A stretch of 64,000 bases of DNA, from assembly GCA_006218025.1 (NCBI GenBank), contig VBWA01000016.1, positions 1 through 64,000 on the forward strand, given 5' to 3'. The position numbers and the translations under genes were made by a program. Positions 17,802-30,753 of the stretch are shown piece after piece (the first letter of the stretch is position 1; each line of letters starts with the position of its first letter). The DNA comes from Rhodocyclaceae bacterium (GTDB taxonomy: Bacteria > Pseudomonadota > Gammaproteobacteria > Burkholderiales > Rhodocyclaceae). The notes beneath the pieces were generated by a model. It saw only the letters and a list, made by a program, of their open reading frames with translations, was not told the DNA's origin and made no database searches.

Positions 17802-18143
17802 CTATTCCCTGTGTGCGGTAACGCCGCAGAACACCTCGCGCATCAGGGCGATGAGCTGAAGGGTGCGCTGGTCGACGATCCGGTAAAAAACCCGATTGGC
17901 GTCCTTGCGGGTTTGCAAGACGCCCTTGTCTCGCAAAATGGCGAGGTGTTGCGAGATATTGCTCTGGGAGGTACCGACGGCTTCGACGATATCCTGCACG
18001 CAGGTTTCCTGGTCGCCCACGACGCACAGAATCTTCAGGCGCAAGGGATGCGAAATCGCCTTCAGCGCGCGCGCTGCGGTTTCTATGTGTTCCTGTTTGC
18101 CGATAAGTTCGCTGATCGCTGTATCCATGATCGCTGTACCCAT
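17802..18143 (-). CDS. ArsR-family regulator, BigR/SqrR/YgaV-like
   Basis: This 113-residue winged-helix repressor has SHPLRLKILC at residues 31-40 and the recognition segment TSQSNISQHLAILRDKGVL. It lacks the CxC metal box of ArsR proper. Cys40 and Cys106 are 66 residues apart, the spacing of the persulfide-sensing pairs in SqrR (41/107) and BigR (42/108), so it may sense sulfane sulfur. A second start at residue 6 is possible. A good -10 (TATAAT on the minus strand, 18194-18199) and two GAAT half-sites lie upstream, and this promoter region is where the prophage has inserted. Confidence 0.85.
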   Translation of the reverse strand: MGTAIMDTAISELIGKQEHIETAARALKAISHPLRLKILCVVGDQETCVQDIVEAVGTSQSNISQHLAILRDKGVLQTRKDANRVFYRIVDQRTLQLIALMREVFCGVTAHRE

Positions 18144-18195
18144 AATTGGTGCTGCCCTGTGATTTGATATCCTGTAACGGCGGCAATTTTGAATA

Positions 18196-18504
18196 TTATA
18201 GAATACTGTTAATCCCGTTCCGCGCAGTTGTCGTCATCACATTTTGCGCAGTCGCCAGGACAAAAGGGAGCAGATACCGCCTTTTTGCTTCGTCCTTTTC
18301 GGTCAGTATTTCCGACGCCGCGACAACATCCCAACGATCCACCCCGATCAAGTCGGCCAGCTTGCCGCAAGAGACTGGTGGTAGTCCACGTCTTCCTGAG
18401 TTGGCGTGGGACAAACTTTCTCTTATAACCCCAATTTCTCGCGCCAGCGCTGAGAGGCTTCCTGCCTTCTCTATGCCTTTGGCTATATAGGTCTTTAGTT
18501 CCAT
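18196..18504 (-). CDS. Phage Xre/Cro-type transcriptional regulator, 3' end formed at the attachment site
   Basis: The 102-residue protein has a helix-turn-helix at about residues 15-50 (SLSALAREIGVIRESLSHANSGRRGLPP) and resembles small Cro/DUF3693-type phage regulators. The ATG is preceded by AAGGAGA. It is transcribed away from the phage gene block, with an operator-like palindrome and a promoter in between, so it is the likely lysogeny repressor. Its last residues (NSIL) are encoded by the attachment core and its stop codon lies in host DNA. In the excised circle the frame would run on through 29966-29883 and add 27 residues ending NALSF. Confidence 0.8.
   Translation of the reverse strand: MELKTYIAKGIEKAGSLSALAREIGVIRESLSHANSGRRGLPPVSCGKLADLIGVDRWDVVAASEILTEKDEAKRRYLLPFVLATAQNVMTTTARNGINSIL
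18199..18208. repeat. Left attachment core (attL), TAGAATACTG
   Basis: This 10-bp sequence recurs at 29967-29976, and similarity continues as 13 of 15 bases. It lies within the last four codons of the Xre gene, whose stop codon (bases 18196-18198) is in host DNA just outside the core. It also supplies part of the -10 element of the leftward arsR promoter. Confidence 0.75.
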
Positions 18505-18552: not shown

Positions 18553-18568
18553 GTGTCATTTTTGACAC
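18553..18568. promoter_or_regulatory. Putative repressor operator, GTGTCA-TTTT-TGACAC
   Basis: This perfect inverted repeat with six-base arms sits at the expected transcription start of the rightward phage promoter, in the divergent region between the Xre gene and the phage block. It is the best candidate binding site for the Xre regulator. I saw no second copy. Confidence 0.55.
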
Positions 18569-19348: not shown

Positions 19349-20563
19349 ATGCGTGACCTTGAGTATGTTCGCTCCCAGCCGGTCGGGGTGCGACATATCG
19401 GGGATGGGCTGGTCGTTGCCGCGCCGTCTGAACAATCGCGCCGCGTCTTACGCCATCTGCTTGTGGCTGGTGCTCAAGACATCTGCTATCCGTACTGGCT
19501 CAAAGAACGCATCGATGAAGAAACCGGCGAGATTCACAAACCGCGCTCCGAATTCCGCCTTGCGATCTGTGGCCGTGAAGTGGTCAAGGATCGTGTGCAG
19601 GTCTACCGGCATGACTCGGCAGTTGGCTACAGCGGCCTCATGCGTTGCGGCAACGTCTGGGGTTGTGTCATCTGTGCTACGAAAGTCCTGCGCCGTCGTG
19701 GTGATCAAATTGCGGCCCTGTTCGATGCAGTGCACGCCGACGGCGGAACAGCGGTAATGGTCACGTTCACCGCATCACATAAAGCCGGTGATGACCTTGG
19801 CGATCTGCTCGGCAGAATAAAGCATGCTCTGCGAGCGTTGAAAGACATGCGGGGTTTCCGTGATCTTGTCGGCGACCGCTCCGGCCAAGTCACTGCGACT
19901 GAAGTCACCTACAGCGAGCGTGCTGGCTGGCACCCGCACAGCCACCAAGCATGGTTCTGGCCGAAAGGTCAGATGCCCGATTCTGAAGACCTGGCCTCCC
20001 GTCTTTTCCCGTACTGGCAAAAAGCCTGTGAAAAAGTCGGCCTCAACACCTTGGAACACTTCAAAGGTCGCCGCGTCGGTGTCGACGTCCGCCGTGCGTG
20101 GGATGCTTCCGAATACCTCACGAAGTGGGGCCGTGAACGTGACTGGTCGCTATCCGCCGAAGTCACATCCGGGCGAATGAAGCTTGCGCATGGTGGTTCC
20201 GTCACACCGTGGGGCCTGCTCGAAGACGCAATTATTCGCGGCAATCAAAGCCCTGCCGCTGATCTGTGGATTAAGTACCTGCGCGGCACAAAGGGCTTTC
20301 AATGCGTGAGCCTTCGCGGCGCTCGCAAGTTGCTTATTCATTACGGATTGCCAACTAGTTATGACGACTGGAAAGACGCCAACGACGCCGGCGAGGGTGA
20401 AGTCGTTGGCTCGGTCGGAGTTGAAACGTTTTCGAAGGTAGTAAAGGCCGGTGGTCTCGGTCGGTTGTTGGAAGGGGCACGGGCGGGTGGTCTGGCTGGT
20501 CTCGATGCCGAATTGCAATCATTCATTTCTCATAGAGAGGATTTACATCATGGGCTTACTTGA
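19349..20563 (+). CDS. rep: Rolling-circle replication initiator (HUH, Rep_1-like)
   Basis: This 404-residue protein should nick the replicative form at the phage origin and start rolling-circle synthesis. It has motif 1 (VMVTFTASH, about 137-144), the metal-binding HUH motif HPHSH at 195-199, and a catalytic Tyr256 followed by Lys259 (EYLTKWG). A zinc-type cluster (RCGNVWGCVIC) lies at 99-109. Only one catalytic tyrosine is evident, as in single-Tyr Rep_1 proteins. The position before the ssDNA-binding-like gene matches filamentous phages. Confidence 0.87.
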   Translation: MRDLEYVRSQPVGVRHIGDGLVVAAPSEQSRRVLRHLLVAGAQDICYPYWLKERIDEETGEIHKPRSEFRLAICGREVVKDRVQVYRHDSAVGYSGLMRCGNVWGCVICATKVLRRRGDQIAALFDAVHADGGTAVMVTFTASHKAGDDLGDLLGRIKHALRALKDMRGFRDLVGDRSGQVTATEVTYSERAGWHPHSHQAWFWPKGQMPDSEDLASRLFPYWQKACEKVGLNTLEHFKGRRVGVDVRRAWDASEYLTKWGRERDWSLSAEVTSGRMKLAHGGSVTPWGLLEDAIIRGNQSPAADLWIKYLRGTKGFQCVSLRGARKLLIHYGLPTSYDDWKDANDAGEGEVVGSVGVETFSKVVKAGGLGRLLEGARAGGLAGLDAELQSFISHREDLHHGLT

Positions 20564-23812: not shown

Positions 23813-24880
23813 ATGTCCATAAAAGCTTATGTCGGCCGCATGGGCTCCGGCAAGACTTACGAAGTCGTCGCGTCCGTCATTGTTCCGGCGCTCGCTCGAG
23901 GTCGCCGTGTGGTGTCCAACATCGCCGGCCTCGATGCTGATGAAATTCGCGGCCTGCTGGTAGAGCAAGGCGTCGCCCTGGATCAAATCGGCGAGCTCGT
24001 TCAGATCACGCACGATGATGTAATCAAGCCGGAATTCTGGCGTACCGACAAGGATCAGGCGGAAGGCGTCGATTCGTTCATTCAGCCGGGGGACTTGGTG
24101 GCCTTGGATGAAATCTGGCGATTCTGGGAAGGCTTCGCCGGTCGCAAGATGCCGGAACGCGTTATGAACTTCTACAGGATGCACCGGCATTTTACGCATC
24201 CGGAAACGGGCGTCGCCTGCGACGTGGCGATCATCACCCAGGACGTTCTCGATATTGCGCGCAAGGTGCGCGCCGTGATTGAAGAGACCTACGGCATGGA
24301 AAAGCTGACGGCGATTGGCAGCACCAAGCGTTATCGCGTCGATGTCTTTCAGGGTACGCGCACCAGTCGTCGGCCTCTGCGCCAGCTGCAGCGTACTTAT
24401 GATCCGCGCTTCTTTCCGCTTTACAGCAGTCACAGTCAGAAAAAGGAAGGTGACGCTGATGCAGTAGAAGAAAACATCGACAAGCGCGGCAATATCCTCA
24501 AGGGCGCGCTGTTCAAGCTTGTCTTGCCGGTCGGCCTGGTCGTGGCGATCTTTGCGGTGTACACCGTCTATTCCTTCTTCAACCCCAAGCCGAAAGACAA
24601 GCCGGCAGCGGTCGCAAAAGCTAGCGAGTCTAAGCCTGGTGATGTTTCGCATGCGAAACCTTCGGTCGACGTTTCCGACGAGTGGCGCGCGGCCGGGTAC
24701 TTCGTCACGCCGGCCGGTGTCGGCGTCTATCTGATCCAGGAGGGGCGCGCGCGCATGCTGCACAACCCGCCAAGTTATCGCCTGGTCGGCTCGGAGGTCG
24801 AAACCTTCCTGCCGAGTGGTCAGGCGGTGGCGTCCTGGTCGGGTAGTCGGCCGGCTGGCCTCGTGCCTGGCACAAAATGA
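23813..24880 (+). CDS. zot: Zot-domain morphogenesis ATPase (pI-like)
   Basis: The 355-residue protein has a Walker A motif GRMGSGKT at residues 8-15 and a Walker B-like LVALDEIW around 95-102. A single membrane span (KLVLPVGLVVAIFAVYTVYSFF) lies near 230-252, followed by a periplasmic domain. Proteins of this type (gene I/Zot) drive virion assembly and extrusion at the inner membrane and contact the secretin. It overlaps the secretin start by four bases. A parS-like palindrome is embedded in the codons for VSHAK. Confidence 0.92.
   Translation: MSIKAYVGRMGSGKTYEVVASVIVPALARGRRVVSNIAGLDADEIRGLLVEQGVALDQIGELVQITHDDVIKPEFWRTDKDQAEGVDSFIQPGDLVALDEIWRFWEGFAGRKMPERVMNFYRMHRHFTHPETGVACDVAIITQDVLDIARKVRAVIEETYGMEKLTAIGSTKRYRVDVFQGTRTSRRPLRQLQRTYDPRFFPLYSSHSQKKEGDADAVEENIDKRGNILKGALFKLVLPVGLVVAIFAVYTVYSFFNPKPKDKPAAVAKASESKPGDVSHAKPSVDVSDEWRAAGYFVTPAGVGVYLIQEGRARMLHNPPSYRLVGSEVETFLPSGQAVASWSGSRPAGLVPGTK
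24644..24659. promoter_or_regulatory. parS-like palindrome, copy 2 (GTTTCGCATGCGAAAC)
   Basis: This is the perfect 16-bp palindrome of the three related sites in the prophage. It lies within the periplasmic part of zot, so it must serve as a DNA site inside coding sequence. It has the same GTTTC-GAAAC arms as the chromosomal parS consensus (GTTTCACGTGAAAC), with a different centre. Confidence 0.65.
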
Positions 24881-26115
24881 AGCGCCTGGCGTTCCTGCTG
24901 TGCTGGATCGCATCGGCGGCGCTGGCCGATGATCGCGTGTCGCTCGTCCTGTCGGACGTTCGTCTGGTCGATCTGGTGCGCGTCACGTTTGGCGAGCTGT
25001 CCAAAGAGCCCTATATCCTTTCCCATGAGGTTCTGGAGTCGCAGGATCTGTTCACCGTCGATCTTCGCTACGTCTCCGCCGATCGCGTCGTGTCCTCGAT
25101 CGCGGATCTCGTTCAGTCGGCCGGCTTCGAGGTCAGGAAGCGTGGCGGCGTCGTCTGGATTGGCAAAGCCCAGGAGCAAGCCGACGAATTGATTGTGTAC
25201 CGTCCGAGGCACCGCTCGGCTCGTTACCTGGCTGACGTGGTGCAAAGCGTCACTGCGGCCAAGTCCGTACTATCGCGCAGCATCAAGCCGATGGAACAAA
25301 TCGGGCAAGGTGTGCAGCCGGTGCCGGTACAGCAGGCTCAGGCAATGAAGCAATCCAGTCCGACCAGCGTCGAGGGCCAGATAGACCGCAGTGAAGTCGA
25401 CCAGATCGCCTTTAACGTGGCCCCAAAATACGCCGCCAAGGTCCGCAAGCTCCTGGCCGATCTGGACACCCCGAGTGGCGAAGTGGTCCTCAAAGCGGCG
25501 GTGTATGAGGTCGGACTGACCAAATCCGAAGGTTCGGCCGTACAGCTCGCCATAAAGGTCGCGGGCGTCTCCGCGTCCCTGTCCGGCAATGTCCTCTCGG
25601 GAGGGTCGATCAAGTTCGCCCAGGGCGGCATTGAGGCCGTTCTGAGTGCCCTTGACGCCGATGTAAGGTTCAAGTCGGTCAGTAGGCCTCAAGTGAGGGT
25701 GAGAAACGGCGCACAAGCCCGTTTTAGCGTCGGCCAGGACGTGCCTGTCCTCGGCAGCAGTCAGATGGATAAGAATGGCAACCCGGTGCAGTCCGTCGAC
25801 TACAAGCAAAGCGGTGTGATCCTCACCGCGACGCCGGAAATTCGTTCCGACGTCATCGAGCTGGCCTTGCAGCAGGAGCTGTCAAACTTCGTCGTCACCA
25901 AAACGGGCGTGAACGGATCGCCGACCCTCATTAAGCGCGCCGTCAATACAAAACTTGGCCTGGTCCCTGGTGAAGTCGTTATGCTGGCGGGCCTCCAGGA
26001 CGATCAGGAGGATGAAACACAGAATCGCTTTCCGTTCTTCGGCTGGCTCATGAGCCAGGAGCGCCAGAACAGGCGTTCTGAAATACTCGTGTTTATCGAA
26101 GTCGTGAGGATCTGA
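24877..26115 (+). CDS. Phage secretin (pIV-like)
   Basis: The 412-residue protein has a signal peptide (MKRLAFLLCWIASAALA), N-domains resembling those of type II/III secretins (VSLVLSDVRLVDLVRVTFGEL, residues 21-120) and a C-terminal secretin domain (VRNGAQARFSVGQDVPVLGS, then LGLVPGEVVMLAGLQDDQ). It should form the outer-membrane channel for virion release. Carrying its own secretin makes this phage independent of a host channel, unlike CTXphi. Confidence 0.9.
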   Translation: MKRLAFLLCWIASAALADDRVSLVLSDVRLVDLVRVTFGELSKEPYILSHEVLESQDLFTVDLRYVSADRVVSSIADLVQSAGFEVRKRGGVVWIGKAQEQADELIVYRPRHRSARYLADVVQSVTAAKSVLSRSIKPMEQIGQGVQPVPVQQAQAMKQSSPTSVEGQIDRSEVDQIAFNVAPKYAAKVRKLLADLDTPSGEVVLKAAVYEVGLTKSEGSAVQLAIKVAGVSASLSGNVLSGGSIKFAQGGIEAVLSALDADVRFKSVSRPQVRVRNGAQARFSVGQDVPVLGSSQMDKNGNPVQSVDYKQSGVILTATPEIRSDVIELALQQELSNFVVTKTGVNGSPTLIKRAVNTKLGLVPGEVVMLAGLQDDQEDETQNRFPFFGWLMSQERQNRRSEILVFIEVVRI

Positions 26116-26896: not shown

Positions 26897-27133
26897 TCAA
26901 GGCTCATGCCGATTCGCAAAATGCGCCAGGCTCCCGGCCGCTCGTTCTGCTGCAAGCAGGTTGGCGCCAATGCGAACGATGTCTCGAATCTCCCGCTTGG
27001 CGCCTTCGCGTTCGTCCTTGTTGGCGCTGGTCAGTAAGGCCAGCAACAGCGCTAGACTGTCCACGGTGTGCTTGCTGTTTCGCCGCAGCGCGATATTGAT
27101 CGCTGCCGCCTTCGCCTCGGTCGCCGGCGTCAC
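26897..27133 (-). CDS. Small helical protein coupled to parB
   Basis: A GTG that overlaps the parB stop (GTGA) opens a 78-residue, helical, Ala-rich protein with no recognisable domain. The tight overlap means it is translated with parB. It could be a partner of the ParB-like protein, since no ParA is present, but nothing in the sequence proves this. Confidence 0.6.
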   Translation of the reverse strand: MTPATEAKAAAINIALRRNSKHTVDSLALLLALLTSANKDEREGAKREIRDIVRIGANLLAAERAAGSLAHFANRHEP

Positions 27134-28374
27134 GCTCTCACCTCGCCGCCGTGAGCGCGCCAGGCCAGGTCAATGAAGCTGTAGCAATCGTCGATCGCTG
27201 ATCCCTGCATTGCCAGCGCGGCGGCCAGCTGTTCAAGATAGGTGCTGTGTTCGTCGACCTCATACGAAAGCCGTCGAGCCCAGTCCATCGCCGTCCAAGC
27301 CGGTGCGCCGGCCTGGATTGCCCGGAAATGCGCCAGCAGGGCATGGCGCTGATCGTCTCGCAGCGTGTTCAGGTGCTGCTGCGGATCGACATCCGCGTAG
27401 CAGACTGCTTCCTCCAGCACGTTAATTATCCAATCCAGAAACGCCTCGCCAGTGCCTTCCTGCCGCTCCTTCGTCAGTGTTGCGCGCTGCTCCTGAGCTT
27501 CTTCCCAGCTCTGCCGTTGCTTCTCTTCGCGTTCCACTTGGGCCGGGTCGAGCTTGGGCGGCTTCTTGATGTCTTTCAGCATCTGGCGGGCAGTTTCGCG
27601 GGTGGCAGTGCCGGCGAGCAGCTGCTTTTCCAGCTCGTTCGCCTTGGAATAGTTCAGGCTATCGATGTGGCTAAGGACGTTGAGGATTTCGACATCCTCG
27701 GTAACGCCTCGCTCCATCAGGTTCCTGGCCTTATGACTAAAGTCCGGGTGTGACAGCGCCAGGCGCTTCGATACCCAGGCCGATGACTTCTTCACCGTCT
27801 CGGCGACCGCCTGCACGGACTTGAGGTTGTCGTGCAGCAGCCGGATCGCGTTGACCTCGTCCTGCAGCTCCAGGTTTTCGCGCTGCACGTTCTCCGCCAG
27901 CTGCATCAAGAGCGCATCCGCTTCTGACGCCTTGGTGATCAATGCGGGAATATCGGATAGCCCCGCCAAGTTGCAAGCTCGAACCCGGCGTTCACCCGCA
28001 ATCAGGGTGAAACGATCGCCGCGAGGATTCAACAATACCGGCTGCAGTAATCCACGCGCCTGGATGTCCTCGGCCAGTTCGTGAATTGAGTTTTCGTCAA
28101 ACACCGTTCGTACTTGCGGCCGGATGTCGATCAGATTTAGCGGCACCAGCTTGACGCTGGAAATGTTCGGCAGTTCGCGGGCTGGGGTCGCCTTTGTTTT
28201 CGCATGCGAAACCTTCGCCGGGGTTTTCGGGGTCGCGGCCTTCGCCGTCGCGGGGGTGGTCGTTGTCATGGTCTCGCTCCTGGTTGGTTGTGTCGTTGAC
28301 TTGCCCACATCTGGACTGATTGCATCCCGGCTCGTGCTCTTGCTTTTGGGTTTTGATTCGATCGATTCGCGCAT
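27130..28374 (-). CDS. parB: ParB/KorB-like DNA-binding protein
   Basis: The protein has a basic, Thr/Lys-rich N-terminus (about 70 residues), then a ParB N-terminal nucleotide-binding domain with the motifs GLLQPV, AGERRVRA (the CTP-binding box) and ENVQRENL. A helix-turn-helix follows (VQAVAETVKKSSAWVSKRLAL, about 195-215), then a long C-terminal region. Two starts are well supported: the first ATG with AAGGAGG six bases upstream and a second ATG at 28269 with AGGAG. No ParA is encoded in the prophage, so it may act in copy control, repression (as KorB does) or virion-form segregation. A parS-like site lies in its own 5' coding region. Confidence 0.87.
   Translation of the reverse strand: MRESIESKPKSKSTSRDAISPDVGKSTTQPTRSETMTTTTPATAKAATPKTPAKVSHAKTKATPARELPNISSVKLVPLNLIDIRPQVRTVFDENSIHELAEDIQARGLLQPVLLNPRGDRFTLIAGERRVRACNLAGLSDIPALITKASEADALLMQLAENVQRENLELQDEVNAIRLLHDNLKSVQAVAETVKKSSAWVSKRLALSHPDFSHKARNLMERGVTEDVEILNVLSHIDSLNYSKANELEKQLLAGTATRETARQMLKDIKKPPKLDPAQVEREEKQRQSWEEAQEQRATLTKERQEGTGEAFLDWIINVLEEAVCYADVDPQQHLNTLRDDQRHALLAHFRAIQAGAPAWTAMDWARRLSYEVDEHSTYLEQLAAALAMQGSAIDDCYSFIDLAWRAHGGEVRA
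28197..28212. promoter_or_regulatory. parS-like palindrome, copy 3 (TTTTCGCATGCGAAAC)
   Basis: The site matches the perfect palindrome at 15 of 16 positions and lies within the parB gene, about 57 bases after its second start, again in codons for VSHAK. This placement would suit autoregulation or loading of the ParB-like protein near its own gene. Confidence 0.6.
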
Positions 28375-29014: not shown

Positions 29015-29959
29015 ATGCTCTCGGTATTAAATGACATTGTGCGTTCTATTCTTGCCGGTTCTATGCTCGATCTCGACCTCGAACGGCAGGCGTGCACTCG
29101 ACTTTCTGAGTTTGTCGAACGGTACGTCGACACGCGTCGGGGCGAACTCAAAAGCCATCGAGCGATGGAACTGACGCTTAACCGCATGATGACCATGCTT
29201 CCGGATGTACCGCTGCCGGAGCTGCGCCGAAACGACATAGCGCAATACGTTGTCGGTCGCCGTAAAGCTGGCGCCGCGAACGGGACCATAAATTGCGAGC
29301 TGCTGACGCTCTCGGCCGCCATCAATTACGCGCGCAACCGTTGGGACTGGCAGATTACAAACCCGGTGCCAGGGCAGTACGTCAAATGGTCGCCCGGCCG
29401 CTTGCGCTACCTCGAACGCCCGGAAAAACAACAACTGATCAACGCGGCCGGCGACGTAAGCAAACGAGGCGCGCACGTCCTGCCCGACTTCCTGTATGTC
29501 GCCATCAATACCGGTATGCGCAAGAATGAAATGATGCACTTGACTTGGGATCGCGTTCGCCTCGAAGCCGGCAGCATCGTCTTGACAGCCGACGACACCA
29601 AGAATTCACGCCCGCGAGTCGTGCCGCTGAACAAGGAAGCCAAGGCTGCCATTGAATCAAGACGGCGCTATCGAAACAGGTATTGCCGGGGATCGCGATG
29701 GGTGTTCGCCGACAGATCGGGCGAACGCGTGAAGTCAATTCACGCAGCGTTTGTTGAAGCGCGGGAGAGAGCGAAAATCGAGGATTTCAGAATCCACGAC
29801 CTGCGCCATACGTTTGCAAGCTGGCTTGTCATGGAAGGCGTGAGCCTGTATGTCGTCCGGGACTTGCTCGGACACAGCTCCATCAAAATGACAGAGCGTT
29901 ACGCCCACCTGGCGCAAACCGCCCTGGTGCAAGCAGTTGCAATGCTGGACGGAAAATAA
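29015..29959 (+). CDS. int: Phage tyrosine integrase
   Basis: The 314-residue recombinase has the complete catalytic set: Arg169 (TGMRKNEM), Lys196, His261 and Arg264 (HDLRH), His287 (LGHSS) and the nucleophile Tyr296 (TERYAH). An SAM-like core-binding domain occupies about residues 25-115. It ends eight bases before the right attachment core, the usual place for a phage integrase, and would catalyse integration between arsR and gpmA. A later start at Met17 is possible. Many filamentous phages rely on host XerCD or transposases, so an own integrase is notable. Confidence 0.92.
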   Translation: MLSVLNDIVRSILAGSMLDLDLERQACTRLSEFVERYVDTRRGELKSHRAMELTLNRMMTMLPDVPLPELRRNDIAQYVVGRRKAGAANGTINCELLTLSAAINYARNRWDWQITNPVPGQYVKWSPGRLRYLERPEKQQLINAAGDVSKRGAHVLPDFLYVAINTGMRKNEMMHLTWDRVRLEAGSIVLTADDTKNSRPRVVPLNKEAKAAIESRRRYRNRYCRGSRWVFADRSGERVKSIHAAFVEARERAKIEDFRIHDLRHTFASWLVMEGVSLYVVRDLLGHSSIKMTERYAHLAQTALVQAVAMLDGK

Positions 29960-29966
29960 AATGTTT

Positions 29967-29976
29967 TAGAATACTG
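29967..29976. repeat. Right attachment core (attR), TAGAATACTG
   Basis: Identical to the left core. It lies between the int stop and gpmA. Its TAGAAT could serve as the -10 of the gpmA promoter, in which case the upstream part of that promoter now comes from phage DNA. Confidence 0.75.
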
Positions 29977-30003
29977 CTATTGCTCTGAGTTGAGGCTTTG
30001 ATC

Positions 30004-30753
30004 ATGTACAAGATTGTTTTGCTTCGCCACGGCGAATCAACCTGGAACCAGGAAAACCGTTTCACCGGCTGGACCGATGTCGGCCTCACTGAAAAAGGCA
30101 TGGCCGAGGCAGTCGCCGCCGGTCAGTTGCTGAAAACGGAGGGCTTCGCCTTCGACATAGCCTATACCTCGGTGCTGCGCCGTGCGATCAAGACGCTGTG
30201 GACGGTTCTGGAAGAAATGGACCGCATGTGGATTCCGGTGCAGCATTCGTGGCGGCTGAATGAACGCCACTACGGCGCGCTGCAGGGCCTCAACAAGGCC
30301 GAAACCGCGGCCAAGTTCGGCGACCAGCAGGTGCTGATCTGGCGCCGCGCCTACGACACGCCGCCCCCGCCGCTGGCTGAAGACGATCCGCGCCTGGAAA
30401 CCGGCAACCCGCGCTATGCGGACCTTCCCGCCGCCCAATTTCCGCGCACGGAATGCCTCAAGGACACCGTGGAACGCTTCCTGCCCTATTGGCACGAGAC
30501 CATCGCGCCAATGGTCAAATCCGGCAAGAAGGTCATCATCGCAGCCCACGGCAACAGCCTGCGAGCGCTGATCAAGTACCTCGACAAGGTATCGGACGCC
30601 GACATCGTGGGCCTCAACATCCCCACCGCACAGCCGCTGGTTTATGAACTGGATGCCGACCTGAAGCCCATCCGCAACTACTACCTCGGGGATCAGGAAG
30701 CCATCAAGGCGGCCATGCAGGCCGTGGCGAATCAGGGCAAAGCCAAGACGTGA
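30004..30753 (+). CDS. gpmA: 2,3-bisphosphoglycerate-dependent phosphoglycerate mutase
   Basis: This glycolytic enzyme interconverts 3- and 2-phosphoglycerate. The phosphohistidine motif LLRHGES starts at residue 6, followed by [15 protein letters not shown] and [13 protein letters not shown], with the second active-site His in [10 protein letters not shown]. Length 249 is normal. The ATG at 30004 begins the conserved [12 protein letters not shown]; an in-frame TTG six bases earlier is less likely. The prophage ends 27 bases upstream. Confidence 0.96.

What the first reader, a model, noticed from the sequence alone, without database searches (positions are those of the whole stretch)
18196..18208. 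Attachment site inside the 3' end of the prophage repressor gene: possible integration-dependent switch
Seen: the core TAGAATACTG (18199-18208) encodes part of the last codons of the Xre-type gene, and the stop codon at 18196-18198 is host DNA. Joining the right phage end (up to 29966) to the core keeps the reading frame and adds 27 codons, running antisense to the int 3' end down to a stop at 29883-29885. The lysogen would therefore make a 102-residue regulator, while the excised or infecting phage would make a 129-residue form. Known: in mycobacteriophages such as BPs, attP lies inside the repressor gene, and integration trims a destabilising tail to switch on immunity. Inference: this filamentous phage has evolved the same logic. 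The tail ends NALSF, not the classic ssrA-like LAA, so a different degron or loss of function would be needed.
Basis: partly seen in the sequence, partly recalled or inferred. Interest (0 to 1): 0.85.

Follow-up and report, generated by a model that had tools for sequence, protein, structure and literature searches.

The report
Phage repressor shortened by chromosomal integration
A filamentous phage carries its attachment site inside the end of its own repressor-like gene, so inserting into the bacterial chromosome swaps a longer protein tail for an early stop; related phages that use different insertion sites show the same arrangement, which suggests, without yet proving, that the protein reports whether the phage is integrated.

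Summary
In detail: the core TAGAATACTG (18199-18208) encodes the last codons of a phage HTH gene, host DNA supplies the stop, and the attP join gives 129 instead of 102 residues. Empty sites in relatives fix the crossover. It is not a one-off: in 23 of 23 related inoviral elements (window included) with both ends located, the inferred free-phage protein is longer, across seven kinds of attachment site. Host-side in-frame stops come far sooner than in other frames (first 15 elements, p=2e-5); inferred tails are net basic in 19 of 19 tested, though the window's own tail is not exceptional. Five circular contigs carry the long ORF directly. The confident fold (to about residue 88) is untouched. 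A selected, integration-dependent rewriting of the repressor is therefore probable; the BPs degron is not supported and no activity was measured. The idea is in print for one dif-integrating filamentous phage, phiRSS0 (PMC3816273). New here: tyrosine-integrase, tRNA and promoter-site versions, the breadth, the host-stop/phage-open pattern, the basic tails.

The parts
18196..18504 (-). xre-type (YdaS/Cro-like HTH) repressor-like gene, prophage form, 102 aa
   Evidence: phrog_638 'transcriptional regulator' E=1.6e-6; PF15943 21.5 bits, below its cut-off of 30; AlphaFold2 mean pLDDT 85.7, residues 89-102 below 50
18199..18208 (.). attL core TAGAATACTG, codes the last codons of xre
18196..18198 (-). 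stop codon of the prophage form, in host DNA
   Evidence: the same bases stand in 18 of the 22 relatives aligned at this site
29967..29976 (.). attR core
29883..29966 (-). phage-side tail: 27 codons plus stop that would extend xre in the circular phage; mostly antisense to the int 3' end
   Evidence: inferred join, the junction of this phage itself has not been seen
29015..29959 (+). tyrosine integrase, convergent with xre across attP
   Evidence: PF00589 E=1.2e-31; phrog_1 integrase E=2.5e-59
18553..18568 (.). palindrome GTGTCATTTTTGACAC upstream of xre, candidate operator
   Evidence: read by eye (arms of 6, below the limits of both palindrome scans); palindromes lie at comparable places upstream of xre in several relatives
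19349..20563 (+). replication initiator-like gene
   Evidence: Rep_1 E=6.9e-6, below its cut-off; phrog_11698, unknown function
23813..24880 (+). Zot/pI-type assembly ATPase of filamentous phages
   Evidence: PF05707 E=1.7e-25; phrog_197
24877..26115 (+). pIV-type secretin
   Evidence: PF00263; phrog_1012 E=1.8e-81
27130..28374 (-). ParB-like gene of the prophage
   Evidence: PF02195 E=4e-19
17802..18143 (-). host ArsR-family gene left of attL
   Evidence: PF01022 E=5e-14
30004..30753 (+). host histidine-phosphatase-superfamily gene right of attR, called gpmA here (name recalled); attB is its upstream region
   Evidence: PF00300

Best explanation
An inovirus with its attP inside the 3' coding end of its repressor-like gene. 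Shown in sequence: integration replaces the C-terminal tail beyond the HTH domain with host-encoded residues, usually an early stop, and relatives keep this relation although they use different attB sites and different recombination systems. Inferred: in the unintegrated circle the repressor is made with a longer, usually basic tail that weakens, destabilises or redirects it, so the phage genome stays expressed; after integration the tail is lost and the short form represses through operators upstream of xre and gives immunity. Only the change of tail is shown. Which form is active, and how the tail acts, is inference.
For: Both ends located in 23 elements, window included: the inferred phage form is longer in 23 of 23 (9, 6, 4, 4). 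In 18 of these (window and the last four set aside) the core was sought from about codon 60 to 300-700 nt past the stop, and in 18 of 18 it lies inside the ORF. The 23 fall into 7 kinds of attB, all in the same direction. For the first 15: in-frame codons to the stop, host median 0 against 21 off-frame (p=2e-5), phage median 35 against 18.5 (p=0.008); off-frame phage>host only 11 of 28. Tails net basic in 19 of 19, mean +5.0 against +2.8 off-frame (p=0.0016), Wilcoxon against shuffle means p=1e-4. Empty host dif arms differ within one genus (TTATGT|TAAAT in G115, TTATGT|AAACT in G164); 10 of 16 dif-type elements read through the host arm in the frame that stops at once, while their own arm is open in that frame. 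Circular contigs L165/L215, L321, L336, L345 and L347 carry the ORF at least 22 codons past the core. L336 reads AIAAGQRFALC|KIVRRLRDRLQQALRAIQARAEPAPA; in contigs L338 and L339 the gene ends AIAAGQRF[VA]LC* at the core; the L336 tail resembles those inferred from prophages L318, L327 and L326. The crossover (codon 99) lies beyond the confident fold.
Against: No expression, repression or stability data exist. The phage forms of all 23 both-end elements, the window's included, are inferred by joining ends; only the five circular contigs show a long form directly. In 7 of 23 the prophage tail is not short (codons after the core: L298 33, L131 30, L343 24, L327 21, L326 14, L153 14, L300 8): the tail is exchanged rather than removed. 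The 7 non-dif elements alone show no significantly longer phage tail (p=0.18). Tail charge: single-element shuffle P is below 0.05 in 7 of 19, and in 5 of 19 (L128, L141, G282, G404, L180) an off-frame reading is more basic; the window's tail is not exceptional (P=0.16). No shared degron: prophage ends (VLC, CIM, SIL) are as hydrophobic as phage ends. In the window the tail is antisense to int, so its sequence may be set by int. Tail pN<pS in 6 of 6 pairs, but on 22 codons and not clearly better than the +1 frame. The statistics ignore relatedness. phiRSM phages are reported to keep their repressor unchanged on integration (PMC3816273). L338 and L339 resemble L336 mainly in the segment before the core and are not verified as integrated copies.
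Confidence: 0.6

Rival explanations
1. Passive overlap: in compact genomes the gene next to attP simply runs through the core and stops wherever chance puts a stop; both proteins work alike.
For: 8 of 27 fetched xre ORFs run antisense into an intact host tRNA gene, so overlap with a core is easily made. Tails of the tyrosine-integrase phages are diverse and not significantly long.
Against: Direction is the same in 23 of 23; off-frames show no such direction (11 of 28); frame-matched host stops in 10 of 16 dif-type elements with phage arms open in that frame; basic tails; an L336-type tail in four phages.
Confidence: 0.22
2. Opposite polarity: the long phage form is the active one (it limits episomal copy number or acts on host genes), and truncation relaxes or retargets it in the lysogen.
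For: Basic tails could add DNA affinity. Yamada 2013 Hypothesis 1: full-length ORF13 regulates host genes, the truncated form stabilises the prophage (PMC3816273).
Against: In BPs the short form is the stable, active repressor (PMC4557955, abstract and passages); the prophage here carries only the short form and must stay quiet (inference).
Confidence: 0.2
3. DNA-level cause: the xre 3' end carries accessory sites for recombination, so gene and attP travel as one block and the coding effect is secondary.
For: In dif-type phages a palindrome TGTCACAAAnTTTGTGAC[AG] precedes the dif-like TTATGT at nearly fixed spacing: gap 53-56 in the 20 contigs read, although 35-62 was allowed in the search (inside xre in the loci).
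Against: The palindrome was seen in dif-type elements only; the window and the tRNA elements keep the geometry without it. It does not explain frame-matched stops.
Confidence: 0.12

Closest known systems
phiRSS0 ORF13 of Ralstonia (Yamada 2013, PMC3816273; passages read)
   Same: Filamentous phage; reversed HTH regulator gene; attP inside its 3' end; integration shortens it (156 to 130 aa); functional difference proposed there.
   Different: Uses host XerCD at dif; the window phage has its own tyrosine integrase and an attB upstream of gpmA. Sequence homology not tested: the two accessions tried (JQ408219, NC_019548) are not held.
Integration-dependent immunity of mycobacteriophages BPs and kin (PMC4557955; abstract and passages)
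   Same: attP within the repressor ORF; prophage form shorter by a similar amount (136 to 103 there, 129 to 102 here).
   Different: Repressor and int transcribed the same way there, convergent here; the long form has an ssrA-like tag there, not seen here; active form shown there, unknown here.
Pf/CTX-type inovirus repressors (Pf4r and RstR, recalled)
   Same: Small repressor of a zot-encoding filamentous phage.
   Different: attP inside the gene is not, to my recollection, described for them; not tested here.

Membership tests
BPs-type integration-dependent immunity | attP inside the repressor open reading frame | tested here: met
   relatives
BPs-type integration-dependent immunity | prophage form shorter than phage form | tested here: met
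   102 against 129 aa (inferred join); 23 of 23 elements
BPs-type integration-dependent immunity | ssrA-like C-terminal tag on the long form | tested here: not met
   judged by eye: window tail ends NALSF; no common LAA-like end among the 19 tails, although circular L321 ends GAAAA
BPs-type integration-dependent immunity | repressor and integrase genes transcribed in the same direction | tested here: not met
   xre on -, int on +, convergent
BPs-type integration-dependent immunity | short form confers immunity, long form is inactive | not testable with these tools
   needs experiment
phiRSS0 ORF13-type | C-terminal truncation of a reversed HTH gene on integration | tested here: met
phiRSS0 ORF13-type | dif attB and XerCD recombination | tested here: not met
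   attB is upstream of gpmA; phage tyrosine integrase. Sixteen of the 23 elements have dif-like cores
phiRSS0 ORF13-type | homology to ORF13 | not testable with these tools
   accessions not held
Inoviridae / filamentous phage | Zot/pI ATPase with morphogenesis genes | tested here: met
   Zot, pIV-like secretin, minor head protein phrog_974
XRE / YdaS HTH regulator | lambda-repressor-like HTH fold | tested here: met
   PF15943 below cut-off; PDB profile match 3bd1 Cro E=2e-4; Foldseek matches to HTH proteins with probability up to 1.00, but none with E of 0.001 or less

The most novel reading that the evidence does not exclude
A widespread inoviral integration sensor: the repressor gene is completed by whichever DNA lies beyond the att core, the host supplying an early stop and the phage supplying a basic tail, and the rule is rebuilt each time the phage lineage changes attB or recombination system. 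The integration state is thus written directly into the C-terminus of one protein.
Probability: 0.55. Interest if true: 0.82.

Novelty: new variant of a known kind. Interest (0 to 1): 0.72.

Why it matters
How filamentous phages choose between episomal virion production and quiet lysogeny is poorly understood (recalled). A repressor whose C-terminus reports integration would give these small genomes a one-gene switch, would extend the mycobacteriophage logic to an unrelated kind of virus, and would turn a 2013 suggestion into a comparative rule that a two-construct reporter assay can test. It also warns annotators that the repressor sequence read from a prophage may not be the one the free phage encodes.

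Tried and rejected
P0001 alone found no relative in viral contigs, phages or plasmids; whole-genome searches did (35 of 395 genomes at E<=0.001, the window's own included). Within the genus only the window's own genome matched (1 of 31), so the window's own tail cannot be tested for selection.

Degron idea: no common end motif seen by eye, dropped. Codon selection on the L336/L318/L326/L327 tails: only suggestive. Phage WC36-1 first looked like a free form; its records OR402836 and OL791267 carry xre at the same coordinates while the latter is 16 kb long, so it is not used as proof. Trimmed IMG/VR contigs L161, L239, L243 and L275 give no attP.

Rows dropped: of the 27 fetched loci with xre, 12 were resolved and 15 not. 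Twelve of the 15 run out of contig within about 11 kb on the phage side (one of them, L159, shows long direct repeats around the xre end that I did not interpret). For G199a, G199b and G080 about 25 kb were searched on that side without a second core; G199a and G080 gave no match to the phage proteins, G199b only a 42-residue pIV fragment, so they are probably remnants. Six circular contigs with an xre hit or ORF were seen; five are used, and L233 was not examined for an att core. L164 repeats L153 and is not counted. For G216, G404, L162, L180 and L145 the core is a 12-bp repeat taken because it is dif-like and lies at the same place; for G216 and G404 other repeats of equal or greater length were passed over. 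L162 and L318 end two bases after the core, so their host arm cannot be checked. In one search (numbers typed over) two off-frame values at a contig end were dropped and two censored ones set to the length available.

Immediate host stop: 10 of 16 dif-type elements (9 of 12 before the last set); with one frame in three expected, binomial about 0.016 and 0.004, worked by hand; the phages are related, so these are guides only. The tree was meant to show independence: seven site types need at least six changes on any tree, dif-type elements do not form one group (5 changes, at least 2 forced by well-supported branches), but 10 of 20 inner branches are weak.

Literature searches. Besides phiRSS0, no title or abstract opening in the rows listed spoke of a filamentous phage with attP in its repressor; some lists were cut (15 of 1,246, 10 of 19), and only open-licence papers are held. 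PMC6813254, PMC7412436, PMC4471427, PMC5608472: passages only.

Full report
What is there. The window holds an inoviral prophage of about 11.8 kb between a host ArsR-family gene and a gene I call gpmA: Zot/pI ATPase, pIV-type secretin, a minor head protein, a Rep-like gene, a ParB-like gene and a tyrosine integrase. Its leftmost gene, on the minus strand, is a small HTH regulator of 102 aa. The host belongs to the family of G158, whose prophage contig is titled Rhodocyclaceae bacterium (L147 and L168); this is inference.

Observation. The 10-bp core is present at 18199-18208 and 29967-29976. At attL it codes the last codons of the regulator and the next three bases, host DNA, are its stop. Joining the phage ends keeps the frame and adds 27 codons. 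The site is real: relatives of the host carry it unoccupied, with left and right flanks overlapping by exactly these 10 bases, in a conserved element upstream of gpmA.

Relatives. A search of 395 genomes of the family gave a match in 35, the window's own included, and in no other genome of the genus (1 of 31). Of 36 loci fetched, 27 held an xre ORF. Many C-termini looked like antisense readings of tRNA 3' ends; ARAGORN places an intact tRNA under the end of 8 of the 27. Repeats between the xre end and the other end of the element mark att cores inside the xre ORF, the other copy lying beside an integrase gene, in L127, L128, L130, L131 and L147, and dif-like cores in L141, L153 and L157. Further fetches and searches added elements, to 23 in all with the window.

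Result. Prophage/phage lengths (aa): window 102/129; L127 118/129; L128 117/134; L130 96/112; L131 154/161; L147 131/180; L141 135/170; L153 139/161; L157 119/141; G282 137/184; G216 125/160; G404 122/162; L162 126/167; L180 121/154; L145 126/167; L295 97/130; L300 144/162; L299 131/158; L298 168/171; and, as codons after the core, L318 0/26, L326 14/24, L327 21/24, L343 24/35. The inferred phage form is longer in 23 of 23. For the first 15 elements the two wrong frames show no such direction (11 of 28), host in-frame stops are much nearer than off-frame ones (p=2e-5), and phage tails are longer than off-frame tails (p=0.008), though not in the 7 non-dif elements taken alone (p=0.18). These tests ignore relatedness. 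The 23 use seven kinds of site, and dif-type elements do not group as one in a weakly resolved tree of the HTH domain.

dif elements. The arm of the empty host site beyond the core varies even within one genus: TTATGT|TAAAT in G115 and TTATGT|AAACT in G164, both followed by the same host segment. Elements whose host arm is of the first kind (G404, G216, L295) read LC|TAA; elements with the second kind (L145, L157, L141, L180) read IM|TAA; L162 and L318 do too, but their contigs end there. Their own arms are open in exactly that frame. Ten of 16 dif-type elements stop at once; L153, L298, L300, L326, L327 and L343 do not.

Tails. Inferred phage tails are net basic in 19 of 19, mean +5.0, against +2.8 off-frame (p=0.0016) and about +2 in shuffles; single-element tests pass 0.05 in 7 of 19 and the window's does not (P=0.16). 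Direct evidence comes from five circular contigs with terminal repeats (L165/L215 141 bp, L321 55, L336 29, L345 127, L347 123), in which the ORF continues at least 22 codons beyond the core. L336 ends LQQALRAIQARAEPAPA; the tails inferred from prophages L318, L327 and L326 are similar, and contigs L338 and L339 have a related gene with the same residues before the core that stops there.

Protein. AlphaFold2 gives a confident helical domain to about residue 88 and a low-confidence end from 89; Foldseek and a profile search place it among Cro/HigA-like HTH proteins, Foldseek without an E-value of 0.001 or less. The crossover therefore changes only the tail. Palindromes 30-75 bp upstream of xre in several relatives look like operators; the window has one at 18553-18568, read by eye.

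Mechanism. Shown: position of att, change of C-terminus, conservation. Inferred: the gene is a phage repressor, the short form acts in the lysogen, and the tail restrains or redirects the long form. I give 0.6 to a selected integration-dependent change with the short form as working repressor, 0.22 to passive overlap, 0.2 to opposite polarity and 0.12 to a DNA-level cause; these overlap and do not sum to one.

Known. The BPs system (PMC4557955, abstract and passages) has the same geometry and a degron shown by experiment; the window lacks such an end and has a convergent integrase, so it is not filed there. Yamada 2013 (PMC3816273, passages) states for phiRSS0 that attP lies within ORF13 and that integration shortens it from 156 to 130 aa, with a hypothesis of two functions. 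The window is a new variant: own tyrosine integrase, attB in a promoter region. I did not see the comparative rule in the rows listed by nine literature searches.

Noticed in passing
L145, L153, L154, L155, L161, L162, L176, L213 and contigs L317-L334, L275: A palindrome TGTCACAAAnTTTGTGAC[AG] about 55 bp before the dif-like TTATGT, at nearly fixed spacing (gap 53-56 in 20 contigs read) across different hosts, inside the xre coding region in the loci; looks like an accessory recombination or binding site.
   Followed up: partly
L145, L153, L155, L161, L162, L165, L213 (xre residues about 83-115): Repressors of dif-type phages carry a hydrophobic stretch followed by SPAEAA-like residues after the HTH domain, as if membrane-anchored or signal-peptide-like; the window protein lacks a clear one (by eye).
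   Followed up: no
18140-18208 and 29960-30006: attB lies between divergent arsR-family and gpmA genes, in a conserved gpmA upstream element GAATATTATAGAATACTG (perhaps its -10 region); the integrase end regenerates TTTTAGAATACTG, so gpmA may now use phage DNA as part of its promoter.
   Followed up: partly
G199 C1:1270031-1270282 and C1:1156203-1156451 (L137, L138): Two xre genes running into tRNA-Ser genes without a second core nearby, one 77% identical to the window protein, the other with only a 42-residue pIV fragment close by; possible prophage remnants or kept repressors.
   Followed up: partly
L155, L152, L176 upstream of xre: Two similar palindromes about 30 bp apart, different in each phage: candidate operators with phage-specific immunity.
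   Followed up: no
L159 (xre end and left end of the contig): Long direct repeats around the xre 3' end and 7.9 kb to the left; might be two elements in tandem, whose inner junction would show the phage form.
   Followed up: no
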